This document shows, in pieces, positions 28,062 through 39,404 of a DNA stretch of 56,405 bases. Each line of letters starts with the position of its first letter. Position 1 is the stretch's first letter. Made by a program: the position numbers and the translations under genes. The notes under the pieces were generated by a model. That model was given only the letters and a program-made list of their open reading frames with translations. It did no database searches and was not told where the DNA came from. The stretch is from an archaeon (lineage in GTDB: Archaea; Thermoplasmatota; Thermoplasmata; Methanomassiliicoccales; Methanomethylophilaceae). The stretch is taken from NCBI GenBank assembly GCA_024399195.1, contig JAKSHW010000001.1:1-56405 (forward strand). Direction: 5' to 3'.

Positions 28062-29129
28062 TCAATATTTCGAAATGGGAGTGCGTTCCACTTCGAGTCT
28101 GTCTTCGGTGGGGTACTCTTCCACTATGTAGCATTTATAGGGGAGCTCTGCACCGATCTCTTCAAGGATCCATGAAGCGATCTCCAATCTTTTACGGTCC
28201 TCGTCTTTGAACATCAGTTCGTCGGGAACCTCGTACTCGTTGCGAAGAAGGTCCATGGCCTCATCGAGGTTTTTGTGATAGATCAGTCCTTTGATTATAG
28301 TGCCGTCCTCGGTTATCACATCATATTCTTTAGCGATGTGTTCCGCTCTGCGGATAAGTCTGTTCCTAAGCTGTACACTGTCTTTAAAAGTGGATGAACA
28401 GAAGTGGATAGGGTAGTCTTTCAGCCTGAACATGACGTTTATGGCGACATCTTCGGCACCCAATACCGCGGACGATAGTTCGTCCTTTACAAGGAAGTTA
28501 TGGGTCTTCATCATGTCCCAGTTGCTTTCGGAGAATTCCAGTTCGTTGAGGTTCATGAACTTCACTCCCACCTCGAAAGCGTATTTGGCAAGAGCGTAGG
28601 TTTCCTCCTCCTTTCCAGGAAGGGCAGGCACTTCCACTCCGACATCCATCTTTACGGTTTTTACGATCTCCGCCAACTGGGTCTTTTCCATACAGGTCCA
28701 AAGGGACTCTATGGGATGGTACCTTATTTCGTCCAATCCTGCCTTTTCCAGTTCTATGGCGTTGTCCAGGTCGATGACCGCGGTATACATGTGGATGTGG
28801 TGTTCCTTTCCGAAACGTTCCTTCAGGAGACGGATGAAATGGATGGTACGTTCCATGTTCTCCGAGGGGTCCCCTCCGGTTATGCCGGTACCTTCCGCTT
28901 CCATGGACAGGGCTTCGTTGATGACCTCTTCGTCTGTAGTGACCCTGCCTTCGTTGGCATATATCACGTCTTTTCCTTTTTTCTCAGCGGATATGGGGCA
29001 GTAGAAACAGCCGGCTTTGCATCTGCCGGTGACAAGCAGGACCATTTTGGAACCTTTGATGCAGTATTCGCATCCTTTGGCCAATTCACCGTTTGCGGCA
29101 GATCCGGAATCGAATCTTTGGAAGGGCAT
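28062..29129 (-). CDS. Radical SAM protein (COG2108-type, uncharacterised)
   Basis: A 355-residue radical SAM enzyme. The cluster motif is CKAGCFYCP (CxxxCxxC) near residue 38-45, followed by the glycine-rich SAM segment GTGITGGDPS near 80-89. A further cysteine pair GCEYC stands at about 19-23, before the canonical motif. The sequence resembles the archaeal group described as related to pyruvate formate-lyase activating enzyme, whose reaction is unknown. It is divergent from pyrF with 51 bp between the starts, including an ACATTTAATAAG promoter element. Confidence 0.85.
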   Translation of the reverse strand: MPFQRFDSGSAANGELAKGCEYCIKGSKMVLLVTGRCKAGCFYCPISAEKKGKDVIYANEGRVTTDEEVINEALSMEAEGTGITGGDPSENMERTIHFIRLLKERFGKEHHIHMYTAVIDLDNAIELEKAGLDEIRYHPIESLWTCMEKTQLAEIVKTVKMDVGVEVPALPGKEEETYALAKYAFEVGVKFMNLNELEFSESNWDMMKTHNFLVKDELSSAVLGAEDVAINVMFRLKDYPIHFCSSTFKDSVQLRNRLIRRAEHIAKEYDVITEDGTIIKGLIYHKNLDEAMDLLRNEYEVPDELMFKDEDRKRLEIASWILEEIGAELPYKCYIVEEYPTEDRLEVERTPISKY

Positions 29130-29180: not shown

Positions 29181-29828
29181 ATGAGAAAAAGCTCCCGCCT
29201 CGTACTGGCACTTGACGAGACCGATAAGGCTAAAGCACTGTCCATCGCCGAATCCGTTTCCGGAATTGTGGACGCCATCAAGATCAACTGGCCCCTTGTC
29301 CTGTCCGCAGGTCCTGAAATGATCACGGAACTGTCGAAGTATTCCGATGTAATCTGTGATTTCAAGGTAGCAGACATCCCTAACACCGTACACCTCATCG
29401 TAGAAGGGTCCCTCAACAGAGGTGCTTCCGCGGTCATCGTCCATGCGTTCCCTGGAAGCGATTCCCTCAAAGAGGCCGTACAGGTCGCCAAAGGAAGGGG
29501 AAAGATCTATGCCGTCACCGAGATGAGCCATCCTGGAGGAAAAGAGTTCACCGCCCCCAATGCGGAAGCGATGGCACGTATGGGTGTGGAATGCGGTGTG
29601 GACGGATTCATAGCCCCTGCCACCAGGCCTGAGAGGATCTCCGCCATTAGGGAGATTATCGGTGACTTGGAGATATTATCCCCCGGAGTCGGTGCACAGG
29701 GCGGAAAAGCCTCCGATGCCATAGCGGCGGGTGCCGATTATGTGATTGTAGGGCGTGCTATTTATAAATCCAACGACCCGAAAAGCGTTGCCGAATCATA
29801 CGCTGAAGATATTTGTAAAATATTATGA
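29181..29828 (+). CDS. pyrF: Orotidine 5'-phosphate decarboxylase
   Basis: PyrF converts OMP to UMP in pyrimidine synthesis. The 215-residue TIM barrel starts LVLALDET, has the AIKINWPLVL lysine strand, the catalytic DFKVADIPNT (Asp-Lys-Asp), IVHAFPGSDS, and the phosphate-binding LSPGVGAQGG and DYVIVGRAIY segments. The archaeal short form is typical. It is monocistronic, and 140 bp of T-rich leader with a strong AT element separates it from the STT3-like gene. Confidence 0.96.
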   Translation: MRKSSRLVLALDETDKAKALSIAESVSGIVDAIKINWPLVLSAGPEMITELSKYSDVICDFKVADIPNTVHLIVEGSLNRGASAVIVHAFPGSDSLKEAVQVAKGRGKIYAVTEMSHPGGKEFTAPNAEAMARMGVECGVDGFIAPATRPERISAIREIIGDLEILSPGVGAQGGKASDAIAAGADYVIVGRAIYKSNDPKSVAESYAEDICKIL

Positions 29829-29969: not shown

Positions 29970-32900
29970 ATGCGCGATTTTGCTAATAAAAAAACCACTC
30001 CCGCCGGTGCTGAAGGCGGGACTTCCGCGAGTAAAGACGATAGCGGAAGCTGGTTCAGCAAGAATTGGCGCTTGGTCTGCTTGTTTGCGATCGTCCTAGT
30101 CGCATTCCTGATTAGGTTCGTGTTCGCATACGGAATATCCGCAGGGGACAATTACGCCCTGTCCGGATCAAGCGCATCTAGCCACCTTCGTGTGATCATG
30201 GAGATCATGGCGGGTACCTACGACCCTGCCAACCAGGCCATGGTCAACTACCCGTATGGTGCTTTCAGTACGTCCGGCCCTGCCTTCGATTACCTGATGG
30301 CTGGTATCGCATCGATTGTTTCCGCAACTGGAATCAGCAATGCAACCGCTGCAGCAGGTACCCTTGCCTGGTCCGCACCCATTCTGGGAGCCCTCACCTG
30401 CATTCCTGTGTACCTCCTCGCAAAGAGGATGTTCAAGGGAGACGAGACCATCGCTGTCGTCTCTGCGCTTTTCTACGCACTGTTCGCAGTCCTGATCATG
30501 ACCACTCCCTTCTCCAACGGTACCGAGTTCCCCTTCGTCGGATTCCTCATCGCAGTCCTCGTCTACCTCCTCACCGTCATCTACGACCGTGCAGACAAGG
30601 CAGGACTCGTCGGATTCCAGGGTGTGAAGGACAAATCCGTCCTCATTCCCGTGATCGTCGCAGGACTCATCTTCGGCGTCATCGTTCTTTCCTGGACCGA
30701 GTTCAGGATCCTCGTCATCGCCGCCGCTGCAATGATGCTCGTCGCCCTTGTCCTCCAGCGTATCGGTGGAAGGGACATGGCGTTCACCGTCGTTGTCTCC
30801 AACCTGATCGTCGTTATCGGTATCGCAATCGGTGCCGTCTACTACCTCGTTGCAGGTCTTTGGGACGATGTGTTCTCCGGAGGATGCCTCATCGCAGTGC
30901 TTGCTCTGGTCTACTCCTTCGCTTTCCTCGCAGTCGAGAAAAAGCCTTGGGTCATCACCATCCCCGTCTTCGCGATCATCATCATCGCCGTCGCGGCAGT
31001 CATCGCCGTAGCCATGCCCGAACTTTCCGCGGCAATGCTCGACGGTAACAGTGCCTACATCGGATCCCTCATGGCATCCCTTGGAAACACCACCACCCTT
31101 GTACGTATCTCCACCATGGCATCCTACTACGGATGGCTCACCATGTGGTTCCCCCTCCTCGTCGGAGTCTGGATGCTTTACAAATACCGCAGCCACTCCA
31201 AGAGCAGGCTTTACGTCTTCACCATGCTCTGGACCTTCGCCATGTTCTTCATGAGCTGGTTCTCCACCGCATACGCATACGTCACCGGTACTGTCTTCGC
31301 AGTTTCCGCCGGTTACCTTCTCGTCACCGTCATCAGGGAGGTCAACGTCCGTTCCTACTTCAAGTCCCTCAGGGGCAACGGATTCTCCGCAGGTGCCAAG
31401 AAAGCCCTTAACTTCTTCCCTCTTGCAACCGTCCTCGTCGTCGTGTTCCTTGTCGCAGCACCCACCGCAGTCTACGCGGTCGGAGCAGCGGTCCCCAACA
31501 ACGACTCCCCCATCGACTACTTCGATGGATACGGCTACAACATCAACACTTCCGACTCCAACCTCATCTCCTCCGCATGGGACTCCTATGCGAACAAGGA
31601 CAAGGACGGAGCCCTCGTAACCTGGTACGGTTACTCCGATTCCGCCACCACTGTAGGCGGCTTCAACTCCGTCACCAGCGTCAATGGTGGAGGAACCGCA
31701 GCAATGTCCTCTACCCTGCTCTCTACCGGTTCCAGTGGAGCTATCGCCTCCTTCATCGTTCGTCTCGTTGAGGGTTCCCCCGCTAACTTCACCAAGACCT
31801 TCTCCGATGTCATCGGAAACGATGAGGCCGGAAAGCTCGTCAAGCTCTTCGACGTCGACAACGCAAAAGCCTACATCTTCGAGAACCCCGCGGACTTCTC
31901 CGGTCTCAAGAAAGAGCTCAGCGATGACACCGCCATCTACCATGCCGCTGTCGCATACATGCAGAAGAACCTGTCCTCCTCCAAGATCACCGAACTCTAC
32001 AACGCCGTTTGCAAAGAGTCCGGAAACAAGATCGGTTACGTCGAGGTAGACACCTCCTTCCTGCCCACCTACACCAACTCCTCCAGCTACCTGTCCACTC
32101 TCGGATACTTCGGTGACTACAGCATCAACGAGTATGGAATCGTTACCGAGTTCTGCACCTGGAACGCTCTTAGCAACTACTACATGCAGAACTACGGATA
32201 CGCACCCATCTACTACAGCGATGCCATGTACGAGACCTTCCTCTGGAACGCTCTCATCGGTATCACCCCCGCCGACACCGGCAGCAGCAACTCCCTTGAG
32301 CTTATCCAGGCACTCGCTCTCAGCGATGGAACTGTAAAAGCCATCCCCGGTTACGGACTTGAGAACTTCAAGGTCGCATACTGGCATGTCATGTACAACC
32401 CCGCATCCGATGCAACCAACTCCTCCGAGGGCTGGGTCGACATGGACGGATTCGAGGCAATCTCCAAGCAGAACGCCGAAGGCGGTATGATCAACTACTT
32501 CGCCTCCCTCGTCGTCCTCGAGTACGATGGAACCACCTCCGCACCTGTGACCTCCTACAGCGGTACCGTTATCGACACCGATGGAAAACCCATCAAAGGT
32601 ATCAAGGTCGTCGCTTACGAGAAGGCTGGATACGACACTTCCGGAGCTACCGGATACGTCCCCAGGAGCACCGTCTACACCGACGCAGAAGGTAAGTTCA
32701 CCATCTCCGTCACCGCTTCCAACAGCAAGGAAGTCCTCGTGAAATACTTCGCAGGATCCGTTGCACTCCGTGATGGATTCGCAATCGCGACCACCGAGGA
32801 TCTTTCTAACCTCGATCTCGTCCTGGACAGCAGTTCCTTCGCGGGAACCGTCTTCGTCACCGACGACACCGTGTTCGAGTCCACCTTCGGAACCATCAAC

Positions 32901-35804
32901 CTCGTTGCTACCGGAGTCGCTTCCGGTAACGTCTACAAGGCTAATGTGGAGTCCGATGGATCCTTCACTTTCGGAAAGATGATCCCTGACATCTACTCCG
33001 TCGCAGTACAGTCTCAGGACTACTCCGCCCTTACTACCGTCACCGTCGATGTGACCGCAGGCGATGTCACCAACGCCCACATCTCCGCAGCAGGAGCTAC
33101 CATCACTGTCAGGCTCACTGACATCTACAACAACTCCTCCTTCGTTAACGACAACACCTACATCCAGGTAGTCGAGAGCACCGGTCTTTACAAGGTCACC
33201 ATAAAGGCAGACACCGTCACCAAGACCGTCAAGGTCCCTGCAACCTCCACCAACCAGACCTATTATGTCTACGTCGATGGAGATTACACTTCTATTAACT
33301 ACGGAACCGCAAGCGTCAAGTCCGGCGGATCCGCATCCGTGTCCATCTCCGTCGTCGAGAACAACCACAACGACGTCCTCGGTGGAGCACAGTACATGAA
33401 CCTCGCCCTTACCCTCTCCTCTTCCGAGAACGGTATCAACGCCCCCTTCACCGGCAAGCTCTTCAGCGAGATCGGTGACCTCGCATCCTCTATGCCCTTC
33501 ACCAAATACTTCCTCTCTTACGAGAACGGAAGCTACAAGGTCAATGGAGATGCAGCATACACCGTCTCCGGTAAGCTCAGCACCGGAAAGGCCGGAACCG
33601 TCGCATTCGTAAACGGTGAGAAGCAGTATGTCTTCACCGCTGCAAACGATGGAGCCTACAAGGCGATCATCCCTGCAGGCACCTATGTGCTCTACGCGTT
33701 CGACACTACCGGAAAGGTCGCACTTACCTTCGACTACAAGGTATCTGCAGACAAGACCGAGGACATCGTCCTTGAAGAGGGAGCTACCTTCACCGCATCG
33801 ATGAAGTACCAGAACCGCACCAGTTCCTCCTCGACCCAGGGTCTTGGATACATCGGTGTATCTGCAGTTCTCGACAACAACGGTAAATCCGTCACCCTTT
33901 ACGGAGCGACCGTCTCCACCAGTTCCACCAGCACCAACGGTATTGCCACCTTCTACGCCCCCAAGGGCTACGATGTGACCCTTACCTCCCTTGTCAAGAG
34001 CGATGAGAACTCCGTCTTCGCATTCAAGGAAGCCTTCACCAAGGTGTTCAAGTCCGATGTCGAGAGCAAATCCGTCGTATGGACCATCAATTACACCGCC
34101 GCAGACGACAAGAACGCCAGTGTCAACCCCATCGATATCGAGGTATACGCGGGCGATGAGCTTCTTACCGGCACCTACAAGGACGCATTCGTCGCAAGTG
34201 CAAGCAGTGCGACCAAATACACCGTGGAAGACGGAAAGATCGTCAACATGATCCCCGGAAGGTACAACGTCACCATCAGTGACGACACCCACTACTTCAA
34301 CGGAAGTGTCACCGTCTACCCCAACTCTACCAAGGTCACCCTCGACATCGTCGAGATCTTCAAGGTAAGTATCACCAAGGACTCTGCAAACGAACTCGAG
34401 TGCATCGCCATCCCCAACGAGAATGGAGATGAGGGAGAGATCGACTACGACTCCGCATCACCCTCTGTCAAAGAGAATGTATACTATCTCCAGACCGGAT
34501 TCTCCTACTACTTCGTCCTCTCCCCCATCGTGACCACCGAGTCCGATGACAAGGATGACGAGTCCGATGTCTTCGAGTACCACAAGGCCTACTTCAGTCC
34601 TGTCGTGTCCGAAGCAACGACCATCGATTTCACCAAAGCAACCATCCGTGACACCGCCGTTATCAGTGGATACCTCGGATCCAAGTGCGAGGGTACCATC
34701 ATCGCCCAGTTCGAGGGTGCAGAGGTCTATGCGACCGTCGAGGACGGAGAGTACAGCATGGAAGTCTGCGCAGGAGTGTCCATCACCCTTGTTGCAAAGG
34801 CAACCAGCACCGTCGGCAACAAGACCTTCGTACAGTCCTTCGCTGACAAGGTCATCAATGCACTCGATGCAAAGGCAAAGGTCACCGTCAACTTCTCCGC
34901 AGACGATTCTGAAGAGAAGAACAAGGACTTCGCCATCGTCGATGTAACTTCCGCCAAGTTCAAAGAGGGAGTCGCAGAGATGAAGCTCACTGTCACCAAC
35001 AACGGTAAGTTCGCAGAGACCTTCAAGGTCACCGGAACCTCCGCACTCATCCTTGACCAGCTTTACGTCGTCAACATCGCTGCTGGCAAGACCGCAACCA
35101 TCGACATCAAAGGTCACTACAACTCCAACACGATCGGTGAGGGTAACGAGAACCTCTACCTTAACATCGAGACCTTCTCCGGATCCAAGTACGGAAAGGC
35201 CATCATGCCTGCAGGTTCGTTCGAAGTAGATGCATCCAAGACTCTCGACATTTCCGTTTCCGGAATGGAGGGAGCATCTGCAGATGCCATCAACGGATAT
35301 GCCTACAAGTATGCAGTAACCTTCGACAACAAAGCATCCTCCGCCGCCATGGTCACCATCGACGCGATCACTGTCCTTGATAACGGATGGACCGCATACC
35401 TCTGTGACTCCACCGGATCCAACATCAAGGCCCTTGGAAGCACTTACACCGTCAACGGACTTGCAAAAGACACTATCTATGTCATGGTCCTCAATGACAA
35501 CAAAGAGACCAAGAACGTTCCCGACATGTCTTTCACCGTCACACCTGCTGGAGGATGCAACGGAATCAAAGCCGCTGAGGAATCCTCTGTGATCGTGGTC
35601 CAGGACAATGTCGCCAAGATCACTCTCAAGGCATACGATATGGACCTTGAGGTCGAGGATGCATCCGTTTCCGGTAACAACACCGACAACGAGAAGAAGG
35701 AGGTCTCCATGGCCTTCTGGGCTCTTGCTATCCTGTCTGTTCTCGGTCTCCTGGTCTTCATCTGGGCCGGACTTAAGAGGGGGGTATTCTCACGCAAAAA
35801 CTGA
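29970..35804 (+). CDS. STT3/AglB-like membrane protein with giant beta-sandwich region
   Basis: A 1,944-residue protein. After a polar 30-residue start come about 13 membrane helices (residues 33-500) in STT3 order. The first extracytoplasmic loop ends SHLR, like the DPYYHxR loop of oligosaccharyltransferases. A degenerate WWDYG (TWYGYSD) lies near residue 548. By eye the expected acidic residues are absent: Ser for the loop-1 Asp, GTE where DxD is expected, TMAS for TIxE, and no Asp in WWDYG. From about residue 860 to 1,900 it has repeated CarboxypepD_reg/Ig-like modules (for example SGTVIDTDGKPIKGIKV), then a C-terminal helix and basic tail RGVFSRKN. ATG follows AGGAG. Confidence 0.8.
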   Translation: MRDFANKKTTPAGAEGGTSASKDDSGSWFSKNWRLVCLFAIVLVAFLIRFVFAYGISAGDNYALSGSSASSHLRVIMEIMAGTYDPANQAMVNYPYGAFSTSGPAFDYLMAGIASIVSATGISNATAAAGTLAWSAPILGALTCIPVYLLAKRMFKGDETIAVVSALFYALFAVLIMTTPFSNGTEFPFVGFLIAVLVYLLTVIYDRADKAGLVGFQGVKDKSVLIPVIVAGLIFGVIVLSWTEFRILVIAAAAMMLVALVLQRIGGRDMAFTVVVSNLIVVIGIAIGAVYYLVAGLWDDVFSGGCLIAVLALVYSFAFLAVEKKPWVITIPVFAIIIIAVAAVIAVAMPELSAAMLDGNSAYIGSLMASLGNTTTLVRISTMASYYGWLTMWFPLLVGVWMLYKYRSHSKSRLYVFTMLWTFAMFFMSWFSTAYAYVTGTVFAVSAGYLLVTVIREVNVRSYFKSLRGNGFSAGAKKALNFFPLATVLVVVFLVAAPTAVYAVGAAVPNNDSPIDYFDGYGYNINTSDSNLISSAWDSYANKDKDGALVTWYGYSDSATTVGGFNSVTSVNGGGTAAMSSTLLSTGSSGAIASFIVRLVEGSPANFTKTFSDVIGNDEAGKLVKLFDVDNAKAYIFENPADFSGLKKELSDDTAIYHAAVAYMQKNLSSSKITELYNAVCKESGNKIGYVEVDTSFLPTYTNSSSYLSTLGYFGDYSINEYGIVTEFCTWNALSNYYMQNYGYAPIYYSDAMYETFLWNALIGITPADTGSSNSLELIQALALSDGTVKAIPGYGLENFKVAYWHVMYNPASDATNSSEGWVDMDGFEAISKQNAEGGMINYFASLVVLEYDGTTSAPVTSYSGTVIDTDGKPIKGIKVVAYEKAGYDTSGATGYVPRSTVYTDAEGKFTISVTASNSKEVLVKYFAGSVALRDGFAIATTEDLSNLDLVLDSSSFAGTVFVTDDTVFESTFGTINLVATGVASGNVYKANVESDGSFTFGKMIPDIYSVAVQSQDYSALTTVTVDVTAGDVTNAHISAAGATITVRLTDIYNNSSFVNDNTYIQVVESTGLYKVTIKADTVTKTVKVPATSTNQTYYVYVDGDYTSINYGTASVKSGGSASVSISVVENNHNDVLGGAQYMNLALTLSSSENGINAPFTGKLFSEIGDLASSMPFTKYFLSYENGSYKVNGDAAYTVSGKLSTGKAGTVAFVNGEKQYVFTAANDGAYKAIIPAGTYVLYAFDTTGKVALTFDYKVSADKTEDIVLEEGATFTASMKYQNRTSSSSTQGLGYIGVSAVLDNNGKSVTLYGATVSTSSTSTNGIATFYAPKGYDVTLTSLVKSDENSVFAFKEAFTKVFKSDVESKSVVWTINYTAADDKNASVNPIDIEVYAGDELLTGTYKDAFVASASSATKYTVEDGKIVNMIPGRYNVTISDDTHYFNGSVTVYPNSTKVTLDIVEIFKVSITKDSANELECIAIPNENGDEGEIDYDSASPSVKENVYYLQTGFSYYFVLSPIVTTESDDKDDESDVFEYHKAYFSPVVSEATTIDFTKATIRDTAVISGYLGSKCEGTIIAQFEGAEVYATVEDGEYSMEVCAGVSITLVAKATSTVGNKTFVQSFADKVINALDAKAKVTVNFSADDSEEKNKDFAIVDVTSAKFKEGVAEMKLTVTNNGKFAETFKVTGTSALILDQLYVVNIAAGKTATIDIKGHYNSNTIGEGNENLYLNIETFSGSKYGKAIMPAGSFEVDASKTLDISVSGMEGASADAINGYAYKYAVTFDNKASSAAMVTIDAITVLDNGWTAYLCDSTGSNIKALGSTYTVNGLAKDTIYVMVLNDNKETKNVPDMSFTVTPAGGCNGIKAAEESSVIVVQDNVAKITLKAYDMDLEVEDASVSGNNTDNEKKEVSMAFWALAILSVLGLLVFIWAGLKRGVFSRKN

Positions 35805-36622
35805 AATTCGCAATATTCGCCGTATTGGTGATGCTCTTCTCCGGAGCGGCAGCAGTCGTCGCAGACGACTCTGCCGCCTTCTCGGCGACCATCACTGATG
35901 ATTCCGGATTGGATTACCAGATCGTCGAGCCCAAGGGTTCCTTGACCTACACTCTTACCTACACCGAGGAAGAGGAAGGTCTCAAGAGCTACTCCGCTAC
36001 CTACAATGCAACCATCAACGCCAGCACTGGAAGTGTCAGCACTTCTTCCGGATCCCTTACTGAGAAGGTCGGAAAGACCCTCACTGTAACTGCTCCTGAG
36101 GATACCGGCACCTACAAGCTTACCGTCGTCATCACCGAGAAGTACACTGTAGAGATCCCCGCCACTGACGACAAGGCTGCAGAGACCGTCGAGAAGAGCA
36201 GGACCCTTACTGTCGAGGAGATGTTCAAGGTCGTCGAGCCTATCGAGCTTAAAGTCACCGTGAAGAACAACGGACACGTCGACATCATCGACGCAGATGT
36301 CAGCTTCTTCGTTGATGGAGTAAAGATCGAAGACAGTAACACAACCTACTCTGTAGCTGTCGGAGAGACCACTGACATCACCTACAAGTACCTCACTGAC
36401 AAACTCAGTGCAGGATCCCACACCTTCCAGGTCAAGCCCTCCGAGAACGCAAGTGTCGGAGTGCTCGGACTCGATGAGGAGCACACCTTCTACATCGACC
36501 AGGGAAGCACTGACTACATGTCCTACATCATGGCGATCATCTTCATCGTCATCCTGATCGGATGTGCATGGGTTCTCCGCAAGCCTGTAAAGAACTACGG
36601 AAAGCCCAAGAACAGGCGTTAA
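35801..36622 (+). CDS. CARDB-like surface protein with C-terminal anchor
   Basis: A 273-residue secreted and anchored protein. A signal peptide (MKFAIFAVLVMLFSG, cut near ADD) is followed by a Thr/Ser-rich region, a CARDB-like beta-sandwich (IELKVTVKNNGHVDIIDADVSFFVDG, about residues 145-230), a membrane helix near 240-260 and a basic tail. No ATG or GTG gives a full signal peptide: CTG at 35801 does, and forms CTGA with the STT3-like stop, like the common ATGA overlap. A TTG at 35825 would cut the signal short. It shares topology and operon with the STT3-like protein and may be its partner. Confidence 0.75.
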   Translation: MKFAIFAVLVMLFSGAAAVVADDSAAFSATITDDSGLDYQIVEPKGSLTYTLTYTEEEEGLKSYSATYNATINASTGSVSTSSGSLTEKVGKTLTVTAPEDTGTYKLTVVITEKYTVEIPATDDKAAETVEKSRTLTVEEMFKVVEPIELKVTVKNNGHVDIIDADVSFFVDGVKIEDSNTTYSVAVGETTDITYKYLTDKLSAGSHTFQVKPSENASVGVLGLDEEHTFYIDQGSTDYMSYIMAIIFIVILIGCAWVLRKPVKNYGKPKNRR

Positions 36623-36688: not shown

Positions 36689-37297
36689 TCAACAATCGGT
36701 TTTGATACGTGTCATCGTTACAGCGGCGGTAAGGTCCGAACGGGATTTTTCCATGATGCTGCGGGCGATGTCCTGTTTACGTCTTGTGGGTGCTACGACC
36801 TCTTTAACGTCCAGGGTGTTCAGGGATTCGTAAAGGGTCTCCATGATGTCGAAAAGACCTCTTGCCTTATCGACGTCCCCTGACATCAATGCTGTCAACA
36901 TGTCCCTTCTGAGCTCTCCTATGGCGTCTGCAAGGCCTTCTATCCACGACGAGGGGAATACATCAAGGTCCAGGAAGGTAGGGATCTCTTGGCCGTGGAG
37001 GGCATAATCGTAGATCACGGTCTCGGCGAACTCCCCCATTGCAGATTCCACATTGGTACTGTACAACACTTTGGGAAAAGCCGATACCGACTCGACCAGA
37101 ACCGCAAGGTCCCCCGATATCGAGTCTATAAGTTCGGGATCCCTTTGACCGACATGTATTCCATGGATGGCCTTTTTGGTTTTACGGATGATCATACGTG
37201 AAAGTTCGAATGCCTTCTCGTATGCTTTTTCTTCTTCCATCAAGGCTTTCTCGGCTAAAGAGACCTGGTCCTGAATATGCATAGATGGGGAATTCAC
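36689..37297 (-). CDS. Translin-family protein (predicted RNA-binding)
   Basis: A 202-residue, almost wholly helical protein of the archaeal translin family. Recognisable stretches are EKAFELSRMIIRKTKKAIHGIH near the start and the ETVIYDYAL and DYVIGLADAIGELRR-like helices that in translins line the nucleic-acid cavity. Archaeal translins are single-stranded RNA/DNA-binding proteins of unclear role. The start is GTG 37297, overlapping the truA stop in GTGA; ATG 37282 would shorten it by five residues. It is the last gene of the purD-truA-translin operon. Confidence 0.85.
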   Translation of the reverse strand: MNSPSMHIQDQVSLAEKALMEEEKAYEKAFELSRMIIRKTKKAIHGIHVGQRDPELIDSISGDLAVLVESVSAFPKVLYSTNVESAMGEFAETVIYDYALHGQEIPTFLDLDVFPSSWIEGLADAIGELRRDMLTALMSGDVDKARGLFDIMETLYESLNTLDVKEVVAPTRRKQDIARSIMEKSRSDLTAAVTMTRIKTDC

Positions 37298-38082
37298 ATC
37301 AACGATTTATGGAATTCCAAACGAAGTTCGTCTTCGTACAGGTCACGCCTGAGATTTTTGCCGTAAGGGCATTCCGGGGGTTTGGGGAATTCAAGGTCGG
37401 GATAGGTGACATCGAGAAGGGTGAGTCCTGTGGATTTGGCAAGACCGAACGTGCAGTCTTTTCCGGCAAGGGCCTGTTTGACATCGTCTATGGAAGACAT
37501 GCCTTGTCCCACCTGGATAACCGCGGCCATTATCCTGCGGATCTGATGCCAAAGGAAATAGTTGGCCTTGAACTCGGTTATTACCAATCCGTTGTCATGG
37601 GTGACCTTGACGTAATCCAATTCCATCACAGTGCTTTTCCCGGTCTCGTTCTTTGCAAAACGTTTGAAGTCATGGTGTCCTTCGAACAGTTTTGCAGCCT
37701 GTTCGAATCTTTCCACGTCTATACGGTAGTCTGGGAAACTGTATCTGTAGAACCGTTTGTCGGCGATACGGGGATTGAACGTGTCGGGGATTTCCACTGC
37801 GGATCTGAAATAAACCCCTTTGGAGACCGCATTGAAGGCACGTAGGAGAAGGAAAAGGTCCTTGAACTCGGTATAGAACGTTATGACGTTGCCGAGAGCA
37901 CTGACCCCTGTATCGGTGCGACTGGCGAACTTGAGGTCCACTTTGTCGTCCGGAACATGGTCTACCAATCTCAGTTTTTCCAGAATCTCCCCGGCGACCG
38001 TACGAAGCTCCGGGGAAGGTTGGATCTGGGAACCGTTGAATCCGGTCCCCAGGTAAGCTATTTTGACGGCTACGCGCCTCAT
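37294..38082 (-). CDS. truA: tRNA pseudouridine synthase A
   Basis: TruA makes pseudouridine at positions 38-40 of tRNA. The 262-residue protein shows KIAYLGTGFNGSQIQP at the start, the catalytic-Asp motif FASRTDTGVSALGN (Asp near residue 57), the RFYRYSF strand and FLWHQIRRIMAAVIQVG near 175. The end, CPYGKNLRRDLYEDE, is usual in archaeal members. The ATG overlaps the purD stop and the stop overlaps the translin start, each by 4 bp. Confidence 0.95.
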   Translation of the reverse strand: MRRVAVKIAYLGTGFNGSQIQPSPELRTVAGEILEKLRLVDHVPDDKVDLKFASRTDTGVSALGNVITFYTEFKDLFLLLRAFNAVSKGVYFRSAVEIPDTFNPRIADKRFYRYSFPDYRIDVERFEQAAKLFEGHHDFKRFAKNETGKSTVMELDYVKVTHDNGLVITEFKANYFLWHQIRRIMAAVIQVGQGMSSIDDVKQALAGKDCTFGLAKSTGLTLLDVTYPDLEFPKPPECPYGKNLRRDLYEDELRLEFHKSLM

Positions 38083-39404
38083 TGTCCGCGAAGCTGTTTC
38101 ATGTGGTCAACCCTTTTCTGGATAAGGGCGGCCGTACCGATGTCGTGACGGATGTAGATGGCATCGCATTTGATGTATCCAAGTGCTGCCTCACAGTTCC
38201 TCTCGGCATCTTCGAGGGTGTCTCCGGCACCTACGACACCGATGGAACGGGACGTTCCGGTAACGAGGGTACCGTCTTCCTTCTCATCGATGGAACCGTA
38301 ATATGCGATGGCCCCTGCGTTCTTGATGCCGTCGATGTCCACGGTGATGGTGTGTCCGGATTCGGAACGTACGCCGTATCCTGTGGGGACGATGTATTTG
38401 CAGACGGTTGCTTTGTTGGCAAAGGTCACGTCGTTCTTGATCTTTCCACCGCTCATCCATTTGATAACTTCGGAGAAGTCGGAGGTGATGAGGGTCAGAA
38501 CGTTCATTGCCTCGGGGTCTCCGAACCTGGCGTTGATCTCGATGATCTTGGGCCCGTCTTTGGTGAGCATGAACTGTCCGTACATGGTTCCACGGTAGGG
38601 GCATCCTTCCTCTGCAAGGGCTTTGACAATGCTCTCTACGATGGAAAGTGCTTTTGCACGGTCTTCCTCGGTCACGAAGGGCAGAAGGTGGTCTGCATCG
38701 CTGTAAGAGCCCATTCCTCCGGTATTAGGTCCTTCATCGCCCTCGTAGGCCCTTTTATGGTCCTGTACGAGAGGCATAGGGATGATCTCGCTTCCGTTGG
38801 TGAACACCATCTGGGTGAATTCCTCTCCGACGGCCTTCTCTTCGATGATGACCTTTCCGCCACCTACGTTTCCATCGAAGATCTCGTTGATGTAGTCGAT
38901 GGCATCATCGATGGTCTTGAGCTGGTCCCCCATGACCTTGACACCTTTTCCACCGGTGAGTCCGACGGGTTTGACCGCAAAATCATAGGGGGCGTTCTTG
39001 ACGTATTCGATAGCCTCGTCGGCGGTCTCACAGCTCTTGAACCCGAGGTTTCCCTCGATGTTGTGGTTCTGGACAAGGTTCCTCATAAAGGTCTTGGAGG
39101 TTTCGATGCGTGCTGCGGCCTGGGTAGGCGAGGCGCATTTGATGCCGATGTTCTCAAGGGCATCGACGACTCCTGCGGACAGGGGGGCCTCGGGACCTAC
39201 GAACGCATACTCGATCTGGTTCTCGATGGCAAAGTCGCAGATAGTGTCTACATCGCTTTCTCCGCAGTTCAGAATCTTCTTCGCCCTGGCTTTTATACCA
39301 GGGTTGGTGTTTTTCATGACTGCATAGATTTCGACGTCGCAACGAGCAAGTGCTTCAATGGCAGCATGCTCCCTGGCGCCGCCTCCGATGGTAAGTATCT
39401 TCAT
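38079..39404 (-). CDS. purD: Phosphoribosylamine-glycine ligase (GAR synthetase)
   Basis: PurD joins glycine to phosphoribosylamine with ATP, the second step of purine synthesis. The 441-residue protein begins with the KILTIGGGAREHA loop, has FVGPEAPLSAGVVD, the ATP-grasp lysine segment FAVKPVGLTGGKGVKV, the GMGSYS turn and the metal-binding EINARFGDPEAM. It heads the operon. A TATA-like CTAAAAATAAACC lies at about 39430-39442 and a weak AAGGTCGA before the ATG. Confidence 0.97.
   Translation of the reverse strand: MKILTIGGGAREHAAIEALARCDVEIYAVMKNTNPGIKARAKKILNCGESDVDTICDFAIENQIEYAFVGPEAPLSAGVVDALENIGIKCASPTQAAARIETSKTFMRNLVQNHNIEGNLGFKSCETADEAIEYVKNAPYDFAVKPVGLTGGKGVKVMGDQLKTIDDAIDYINEIFDGNVGGGKVIIEEKAVGEEFTQMVFTNGSEIIPMPLVQDHKRAYEGDEGPNTGGMGSYSDADHLLPFVTEEDRAKALSIVESIVKALAEEGCPYRGTMYGQFMLTKDGPKIIEINARFGDPEAMNVLTLITSDFSEVIKWMSGGKIKNDVTFANKATVCKYIVPTGYGVRSESGHTITVDIDGIKNAGAIAYYGSIDEKEDGTLVTGTSRSIGVVGAGDTLEDAERNCEAALGYIKCDAIYIRHDIGTAALIQKRVDHMKQLRGQ

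What the first reader, a model, noticed from the sequence alone, without database searches (positions are those of the whole stretch)
29970..35804. STT3-fold protein apparently without oligosaccharyltransferase acidic residues, fused to about 1,000 residues of beta-sandwich modules
Topology and loop positions match AglB/STT3, but by eye the loop-1 Asp (S in SASSHLR), the DxD region (GTE), the TIxE Glu (TMAS) and the Asp of WWDYG (TWYGYSD) are all changed. Ordinary AglB proteins need these for metal and acceptor binding. With the huge extracytoplasmic region and C-terminal anchor this may be a non-glycosylating surface scaffold, or a transferase with another chemistry.
Basis: partly seen in the sequence, partly recalled or inferred. 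Interest (0 to 1): 0.75.

Follow-up and report, generated by a model that had tools for sequence, protein, structure and literature searches.

The report
Catalytically gutted archaeal oligosaccharyltransferase, still kept
A whole family of gut methanogens appears to have kept its only copy of AglB, the enzyme that attaches sugars to surface proteins, while losing the residues the enzyme needs for catalysis, so the protein probably now serves a structural role and classical N-glycosylation has probably been abandoned.

Summary
The ORF (29970-35804) is the only STT3/AglB homologue found in its genome. It sits in the ancestral aglB locus, and its predicted fold matches A. fulgidus AglB best. All five catalytic or acceptor-site acids are replaced (S68, T185, F187, T374, G554), as is an invariant Arg (A434).

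The giant beta-sandwich region is not part of the oddity. AglBs of about 2,000-2,400 aa are usual across the class, including relatives with intact sites. The oddity is lineage-wide loss. Other families of Methanomassiliicoccales, and two basal genera of the window's own family, keep GGSD/DHD/TISE/WWDYG. All other Methanomethylophilaceae sampled (56-sequence clade, long stem branch) have lost the metal site. A WWDYGFEA DNA signature is present in 44 of 52 genomes outside that clade and 0 of 95 others in the family.

Independent evidence agrees. NxT sequons are enriched about 2-fold where the site is intact, weakly or not where it is lost. Glycosyltransferases drop from a median of 19 to 6. The gene remains under purifying selection.

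Best reading: a retained pseudo-oligosaccharyltransferase, probably a surface scaffold with a co-encoded CARDB protein. The scaffold role is inferred.

The parts
29970..35804 (+). Sole aglB/STT3 orthologue, 1,944 aa; pseudo-oligosaccharyltransferase with giant C-terminal ectodomain
   Evidence: ORF and translation; fold; single copy; start matches orthologues (MRKF...)
30051..31487 (+). STT3/GT-C multi-TM membrane domain (residues 28-506)
   Evidence: Model, Foldseek to AfAglB
30171..30173 (+). First DXD metal Asp replaced: S68 (GGSD in intact orthologues, Asp47 of AfAglB)
   Evidence: residue role PMC8342417
30522..30530 (+). Second DXD (DHD in intact orthologues, Asp161/His163 of AfAglB) replaced by T185-E186-F187
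31080..31091 (+). True TIxE position: LGNT (residues 371-374), Glu replaced by T374; intact orthologues TISE
31269..31271 (+). Arg invariant in all intact orthologues replaced by A434
   Evidence: aligned to the R of GQNRFAYYF in AfAglB
31623..31637 (+). WWDYG acceptor motif degenerate: W552-Y-G-Y-S556
   Evidence: signature scan
31488..32519 (+). Extracytoplasmic globular domain equivalent to the AglB C-terminal globular domain (residues 507-850)
   Evidence: Model; alignment to orthologues
32520..35684 (+). About 1,050 residues of tandem beta-sandwich modules (CarboxypepD_reg-like, below Pfam's cut-off)
35709..35777 (+). C-terminal transmembrane helix, residues 1914-1936, followed by short basic tail
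   Evidence: Model
35801..36622 (+). Partner gene: signal peptide, CARDB/Ig-like ectodomain, C-terminal TM; reading frame overlaps the aglB stop by 4 nt (CTG start proposed at 35801; listed ORF start 35825)
   Evidence: Pfam CARDB; frame and overlap; conserved neighbour order-wide
29181..29828 (+). pyrF (orotidine 5'-phosphate decarboxylase), syntenic anchor upstream of aglB
   Evidence: Pfam; synteny
28062..29129 (-). Radical SAM gene, syntenic anchor
36689..37297 (-). Translin-like gene, syntenic anchor
37294..38082 (-). truA (tRNA pseudouridine synthase), syntenic anchor in the family
38079..39404 (-). purD (GAR synthetase), syntenic anchor

Best explanation
The gene is the vertically inherited aglB of a methanogen of the family Methanomethylophilaceae. 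In the ancestor of most of this family the enzyme began to lose its metal-binding and sequon-binding residues and an otherwise invariant Arg, and it became a pseudo-oligosaccharyltransferase. SHOWN by computation: single copy, ancestral locus, AglB fold, loss of the catalytic positions, relaxed constraint at those positions, continued purifying selection on the whole protein, and faded sequon enrichment. INFERRED: AglB-type N-glycosylation has ceased in this lineage. INFERRED, weaker: the protein is kept because its multi-TM body anchors a roughly 1,000-residue beta-sandwich ectodomain and works with the overlapping CARDB membrane protein as a cell-surface scaffold, a role it already had beside catalysis in Thermoplasmata with active AglB.
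For: (1) Orthology: rSAM-pyrF-STT3-CARDB-translin-(truA)-purD order is shared with intact-site families. (2) Intact relatives: GGSD/DHD/TISE/WWDYG in families f2-f6 and f1 genera g10 and g14; lost in the remaining 56-sequence f1 clade, whose stem is 1.43 changes per site against 0.29 for neighbouring stems, with one parsimony loss at DxD position 1. (3) Whole order: WWDYGFEA DNA signature in 38/45 non-f1 genomes and 6/7 of g10+g14, but 0/95 other f1 genomes. (4) No other STT3 gene in seven near-complete degenerate-site genomes or G000. (5) Sequons: AglB ectodomains NxT/TxN 173/86 intact versus 349/402 degenerate (Fisher p 1.6e-8; per-protein test); sampled secreted proteins 289/154 in 4 intact genomes versus 170/143 in 3 degenerate, p 0.003; cytosolic controls 0.73-1.16. 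(6) Glycosyltransferases PF00535+PF00534: median 19 versus 6, consistent with PMC9723798. (7) dN/dS 0.10-0.36 in the STT3 half, 0.11-0.67 in the ectodomain. (8) Former catalytic columns fall to ordinary or poor conservation.
Against: No glycoproteomic data were available. One degenerate genome (G017, genus g5, Methanoplasma type) still shows a mild excess, NxT/TxN 118/88. Glycosyltransferases are reduced, not absent, so lipid-linked glycans may still be made. E186 lies in the old second DXD and is kept in 75% of the degenerate clade. WxD is kept in several genera. Active-site state is confounded with family and habitat. The scaffold role has no direct evidence, and the beta-sandwich region diverges faster than the STT3 part.
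Confidence: 0.7

Rival explanations
1. It is still a glycosyltransferase with altered chemistry: a metal-independent GT-C enzyme comparable to DPY19 C-mannosyltransferase, or an enzyme using another donor or acceptor, with catalysis by residues such as E186 and conserved loop residues.
For: The GT-C body is kept under purifying selection. EL1 and second-DXD loop segments have somewhat lower entropy than the TM average. E186 is present in 75% of the degenerate clade. DPY19 structures are among the Foldseek hits (E 1.8e-5).
Against: No acid is invariant in the pocket loops of the clade. First-loop Asp is lost in all but four of the 56 sequences (one more has Glu). Catalytic columns sit at the 32nd-98th entropy percentile. 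The Arg invariant in intact AglBs becomes Ser, Asp, Ala or Glu. E186 is missing in several members of the window's own genus.
Confidence: 0.12
2. Pseudo-enzyme retained as a chaperone or secretion partner: it still binds nascent peptides or lipid carriers at the membrane and helps folding of surface proteins, without glycosyl transfer.
For: Whole fold retained. Former active-site loops are not more variable than the rest of the protein. Overlapping CARDB membrane partner retained in the family.
Against: Sequon-binding TIxE and WWDYG are degenerate, so the known peptide-binding mode is gone. No direct evidence of translocon association.
Confidence: 0.2
3. Decaying gene on its way to loss after N-glycosylation became dispensable.
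For: Site lost stepwise, stem branch accelerated.
Against: Intact long ORF in nearly all sampled species of about a dozen genera, dN/dS well below 1, partner gene retained. Loss is old relative to family diversification.
Confidence: 0.03
4. Alignment artefact: acids are intact but mis-registered.
Against: Dense intermediate orthologues align the motif blocks with few gaps. Intact motifs align to AfAglB.
Confidence: 0.02

Closest known systems
AglB, archaeal oligosaccharyltransferase (A. fulgidus AglB, PDB 3waj/5gmy/7e9s)
   Same: GT-C multi-TM fold plus globular domain; best structural match; a profile including the window protein hits 3waj at E 6e-37
   Different: All metal ligands, the TIxE Glu, the WWDYG Asp and an invariant Arg replaced; about 1,050 extra beta-sandwich residues and a C-terminal TM
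Giant AglB of Thermoplasmata (about 2,000-2,400 aa)
   Same: Same length class and, within the order, same locus with CARDB partner
   Different: Orthologues in other families of the order keep GGSD/DHD/TISE/WWDYG; whole protein roughly 200 aa longer there
DPY19 C-mannosyltransferase and other GT-C enzymes
   Same: GT-C fold; from memory DPY19 works without a metal
   Different: Much weaker structural match; no equivalent conserved catalytic acid in the degenerate clade

Membership tests
STT3/AglB family (by descent and fold) | STT3 GT-C fold and orthology to AglB | tested here: met
STT3/AglB family (by descent and fold) | Pfam PF02516 match | tested here: not met
   profile shortfall from divergence, orthology shown otherwise
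Catalytically competent AglB | First DXD metal Asp | tested here: not met
   S68
Catalytically competent AglB | Second DXD (Asp and Asp/His metal ligands) | tested here: not met
   T185 and F187
Catalytically competent AglB | TIxE Glu | tested here: not met
   T374 in LGNT
Catalytically competent AglB | WWDYG Ser/Thr-binding motif | tested here: not met
   WYGYS
Catalytically competent AglB | Metal binding and glycan transfer to NxS/T | not testable with these tools
   Needs biochemistry
Catalytically competent AglB | Sequon enrichment in secreted proteins of the host lineage (indirect sign of activity) | tested here: inconclusive
   Pooled NxT/TxN 170/143 (binomial p 0.14) in 3 degenerate genomes versus 289/154 in 4 intact ones; G017 keeps a mild excess; the window genome itself was not sampled beyond the window
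Pseudoenzyme | Catalytic residues lost, fold kept, gene under purifying selection | tested here: met
   (fold is a prediction)
Pseudoenzyme | No catalytic activity in assay | not testable with these tools
   Needs biochemistry
Surface scaffold | Surface exposure, abundance, partner binding | not testable with these tools
   Topology inferred from models only

The most novel reading that the evidence does not exclude
An entire family of gut methanogens has converted its only oligosaccharyltransferase into a non-glycosylating surface scaffold, abandoning AglB-type N-glycosylation. A second, partial and independent degeneration (G041 in family f6) would make this a recurrent trajectory.
Probability: 0.5. 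Interest if true: 0.75.

Novelty: new variant of a known kind. Interest (0 to 1): 0.62.

Why it matters
STT3/AglB is the signature enzyme of N-glycosylation in all domains. I know of no described lineage that keeps the protein, as its only copy, without the catalytic residues, and library searches found none. If true, presence of aglB homologues cannot be used as evidence of N-glycosylation, and gut Methanomassiliicoccales become a natural experiment on what OST scaffolds do beyond catalysis. It also extends the reported loss of glycosyltransferases in gut methanogens (PMC9723798). A cultured member, Methanomethylophilus alvi (PMC10673518), makes it testable.

Tried and rejected
Pfam on the whole ORF gave no STT3 hit and phmmer against PDB gave only chance matches; orthologue profiles were needed. 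'Fusion as the novelty' was rejected because giant AglBs are class-wide. A genome-contig scan with a very diverse alignment failed and was redone with family sequences. DGGK and DK/MI motif regex scans were uninformative in intact and degenerate sequences alike. Foldseek on the ectodomain gave only generic tandem Ig-like proteins with query TM-scores of 0.1 or less. Organism identity of G041, g10 and g14 could not be established.

Full report
WHAT IS THERE. The ORF runs from ATG 29970 to TGA 35804 and encodes 1,944 aa. AlphaFold2 on residues 1-857 with 40 family sequences gave pLDDT 81.4 and pTM 0.71. Foldseek ranks A. fulgidus AglB first (7e9s, E 3.6e-14), followed by other AglB, STT3 and PglB entries. 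Sequence alone barely shows this: Pfam PF02516 does not match. An orthologue profile that includes this protein hits 3waj at E 6e-37. Residues 851-1944 are predicted as an all-beta string of sandwich modules ending in one TM helix.

WHERE IT LIVES. Matching contig lengths and coordinates identify relatives G001 and G013 as Candidatus Methanomethylophilus (UBA78, 1R26) and G029 as Candidatus Methanoplasma. The gene order radical SAM - pyrF - aglB - CARDB protein - translin-like - (truA) - purD is shared with other families of the order, so this is the ancestral aglB, not a paralogue. The CARDB membrane protein frame overlaps the aglB stop by 4 nt in many loci of both groups, which suggests translational coupling; some loci have a TAA stop, where the overlap would not give a standard start codon.

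THE RESIDUES. In AfAglB the metal is held by Asp47 (first DXD) and Asp161/His163 (second DXD), with Glu360 of TIXE through water; WWDYG helps bind the sequon Ser/Thr (PMC8342417). Intact orthologues read GGSD, DHD, TISE, WWDYG and align with AfAglB. The window has S68, T185/F187, T374 and G554 at those columns, and A434 at a column that is Arg in all 20 intact orthologues.

THE LINEAGE PATTERN. Families f2-f6 (one member excepted, see below) and the f1 genera g10 and g14 carry the intact set. All other f1 sequences form one clade (56 rows, SH-aLRT 100) on a stem of 1.43 changes per site, against 0.29 for the neighbouring stems. The tree was a quick search, with the catalytic columns left out. 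Loss looks stepwise: g7 and g9 keep the first-loop Asp, and several genera keep WxD. The first Asp of the second DXD changes once on the tree. A DNA signature for WWDYGFEA is found in 38/45 genomes outside f1, in 6/7 of g10+g14, and in 0/95 other f1 genomes. One member of another family (G041, L058) has partly degenerate motifs (ADYFGM, WNGYG), an independent change; its TIxE region is ambiguous because of a deletion.

NO SPARE COPY. A profile of intact AglBs finds only this ORF in G000 and only its orthologue in seven near-complete degenerate-site genomes. G000 is 89% complete, but the seven relatives (99%) are not subject to that doubt.

IS GLYCOSYLATION GONE? If AglB is inactive, sequons should no longer be favoured. 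Using the reversed tripeptide as control, AglB ectodomains give NxT/TxN 173/86 in intact-site proteins and 349/402 in degenerate ones. A per-protein test agrees (median log2 ratio 0.85 versus -0.26, p 4e-5, not corrected for phylogeny). In sampled secreted proteins the counts are 289/154 in four intact genomes and 170/143 in three degenerate ones. Cytosolic proteins give T-ratios of 0.73-1.16. One degenerate genome, G017, keeps a mild excess (118/88), which may be residual or real; this is the main blemish. Glycosyltransferase families PF00535 plus PF00534 have median 19 genes in intact and 6 in degenerate genomes of at least 90% completeness. Reduced glycosyltransferase numbers in gut Methanomassiliicoccales were already reported (PMC9723798). 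These comparisons are confounded with family and habitat.

WHY KEPT? The gene is not decaying: dN/dS is 0.10-0.36 in the STT3 half and 0.11-0.67 in the ectodomain for closely related pairs, and the long ORF is intact across the family. Constraint at the old active site has relaxed: the catalytic columns are at entropy percentiles 0.32-0.98 in the degenerate clade against 0.02-0.10 in intact ones, and the pocket segments are no longer clearly more conserved than random segments (12% of random sets are as conserved, against 0% in intact AglBs). What is preserved is the membrane body, the ectodomain and the co-encoded partner. The simplest account is that AglB in this class had a second, structural role tied to its giant ectodomain, and that this role outlived catalysis. 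That last step is inference.

WHAT IS NOT SPECIAL. The beta-sandwich extension is ordinary for the class: AglB ORFs of about 2,000-2,400 aa occur throughout the Thermoplasmata genomes sampled.

ALTERNATIVES. A new chemistry cannot be excluded. E186, in the middle of the old second DXD, is present in 75% of the degenerate clade but missing in several species of the window's own genus, and no invariant acid has appeared in the pocket loops. A chaperone-like role is compatible with all data and is the nearest rival. Pseudogene decay and mis-alignment are effectively excluded.

VERDICT. A confirmed, lineage-wide, apparently catalytically dead AglB: a new variant of a known kind, well supported as to loss of the site, moderately supported as to loss of N-glycosylation, weakly supported as to its present function.

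Noticed in passing
L058 (G041:C2:229000-237000): AglB of an f6 relative with ADYFGM instead of ADHDAM and WNGYG instead of WWDYG while most of its protein stays close to intact AglBs (899 bits): an independent, partial active-site loss.
   Followed up: partly
window 35801-36622: CARDB membrane protein co-encoded with aglB across the order, frame overlapping the aglB stop; a candidate accessory OST subunit not described in the papers I found. Probable non-standard CTG start here.
   Followed up: partly
Thermoplasmata class, e.g. G151, G160, G167, G186, G190 (family f11): AglB-like ORFs of about 2,200 aa in family f11 match PF02516 only weakly; their active-site motifs were not checked and may also be divergent.
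   Followed up: no
G000 contigs C157, C254, C292, C8: The window's genome has 17 GT2 (PF00535) hits, several in 700-1,500-aa frames, against 0-7 in its f1 relatives; either a surface-glycan cluster or contaminant contigs.
   Followed up: no
L036, L038 (g9) and L040, L041 (g7): Intermediate states: first-loop Asp kept and, in g9, WLDYG or WLDFG kept while DHD and TISE are lost.
   Followed up: partly
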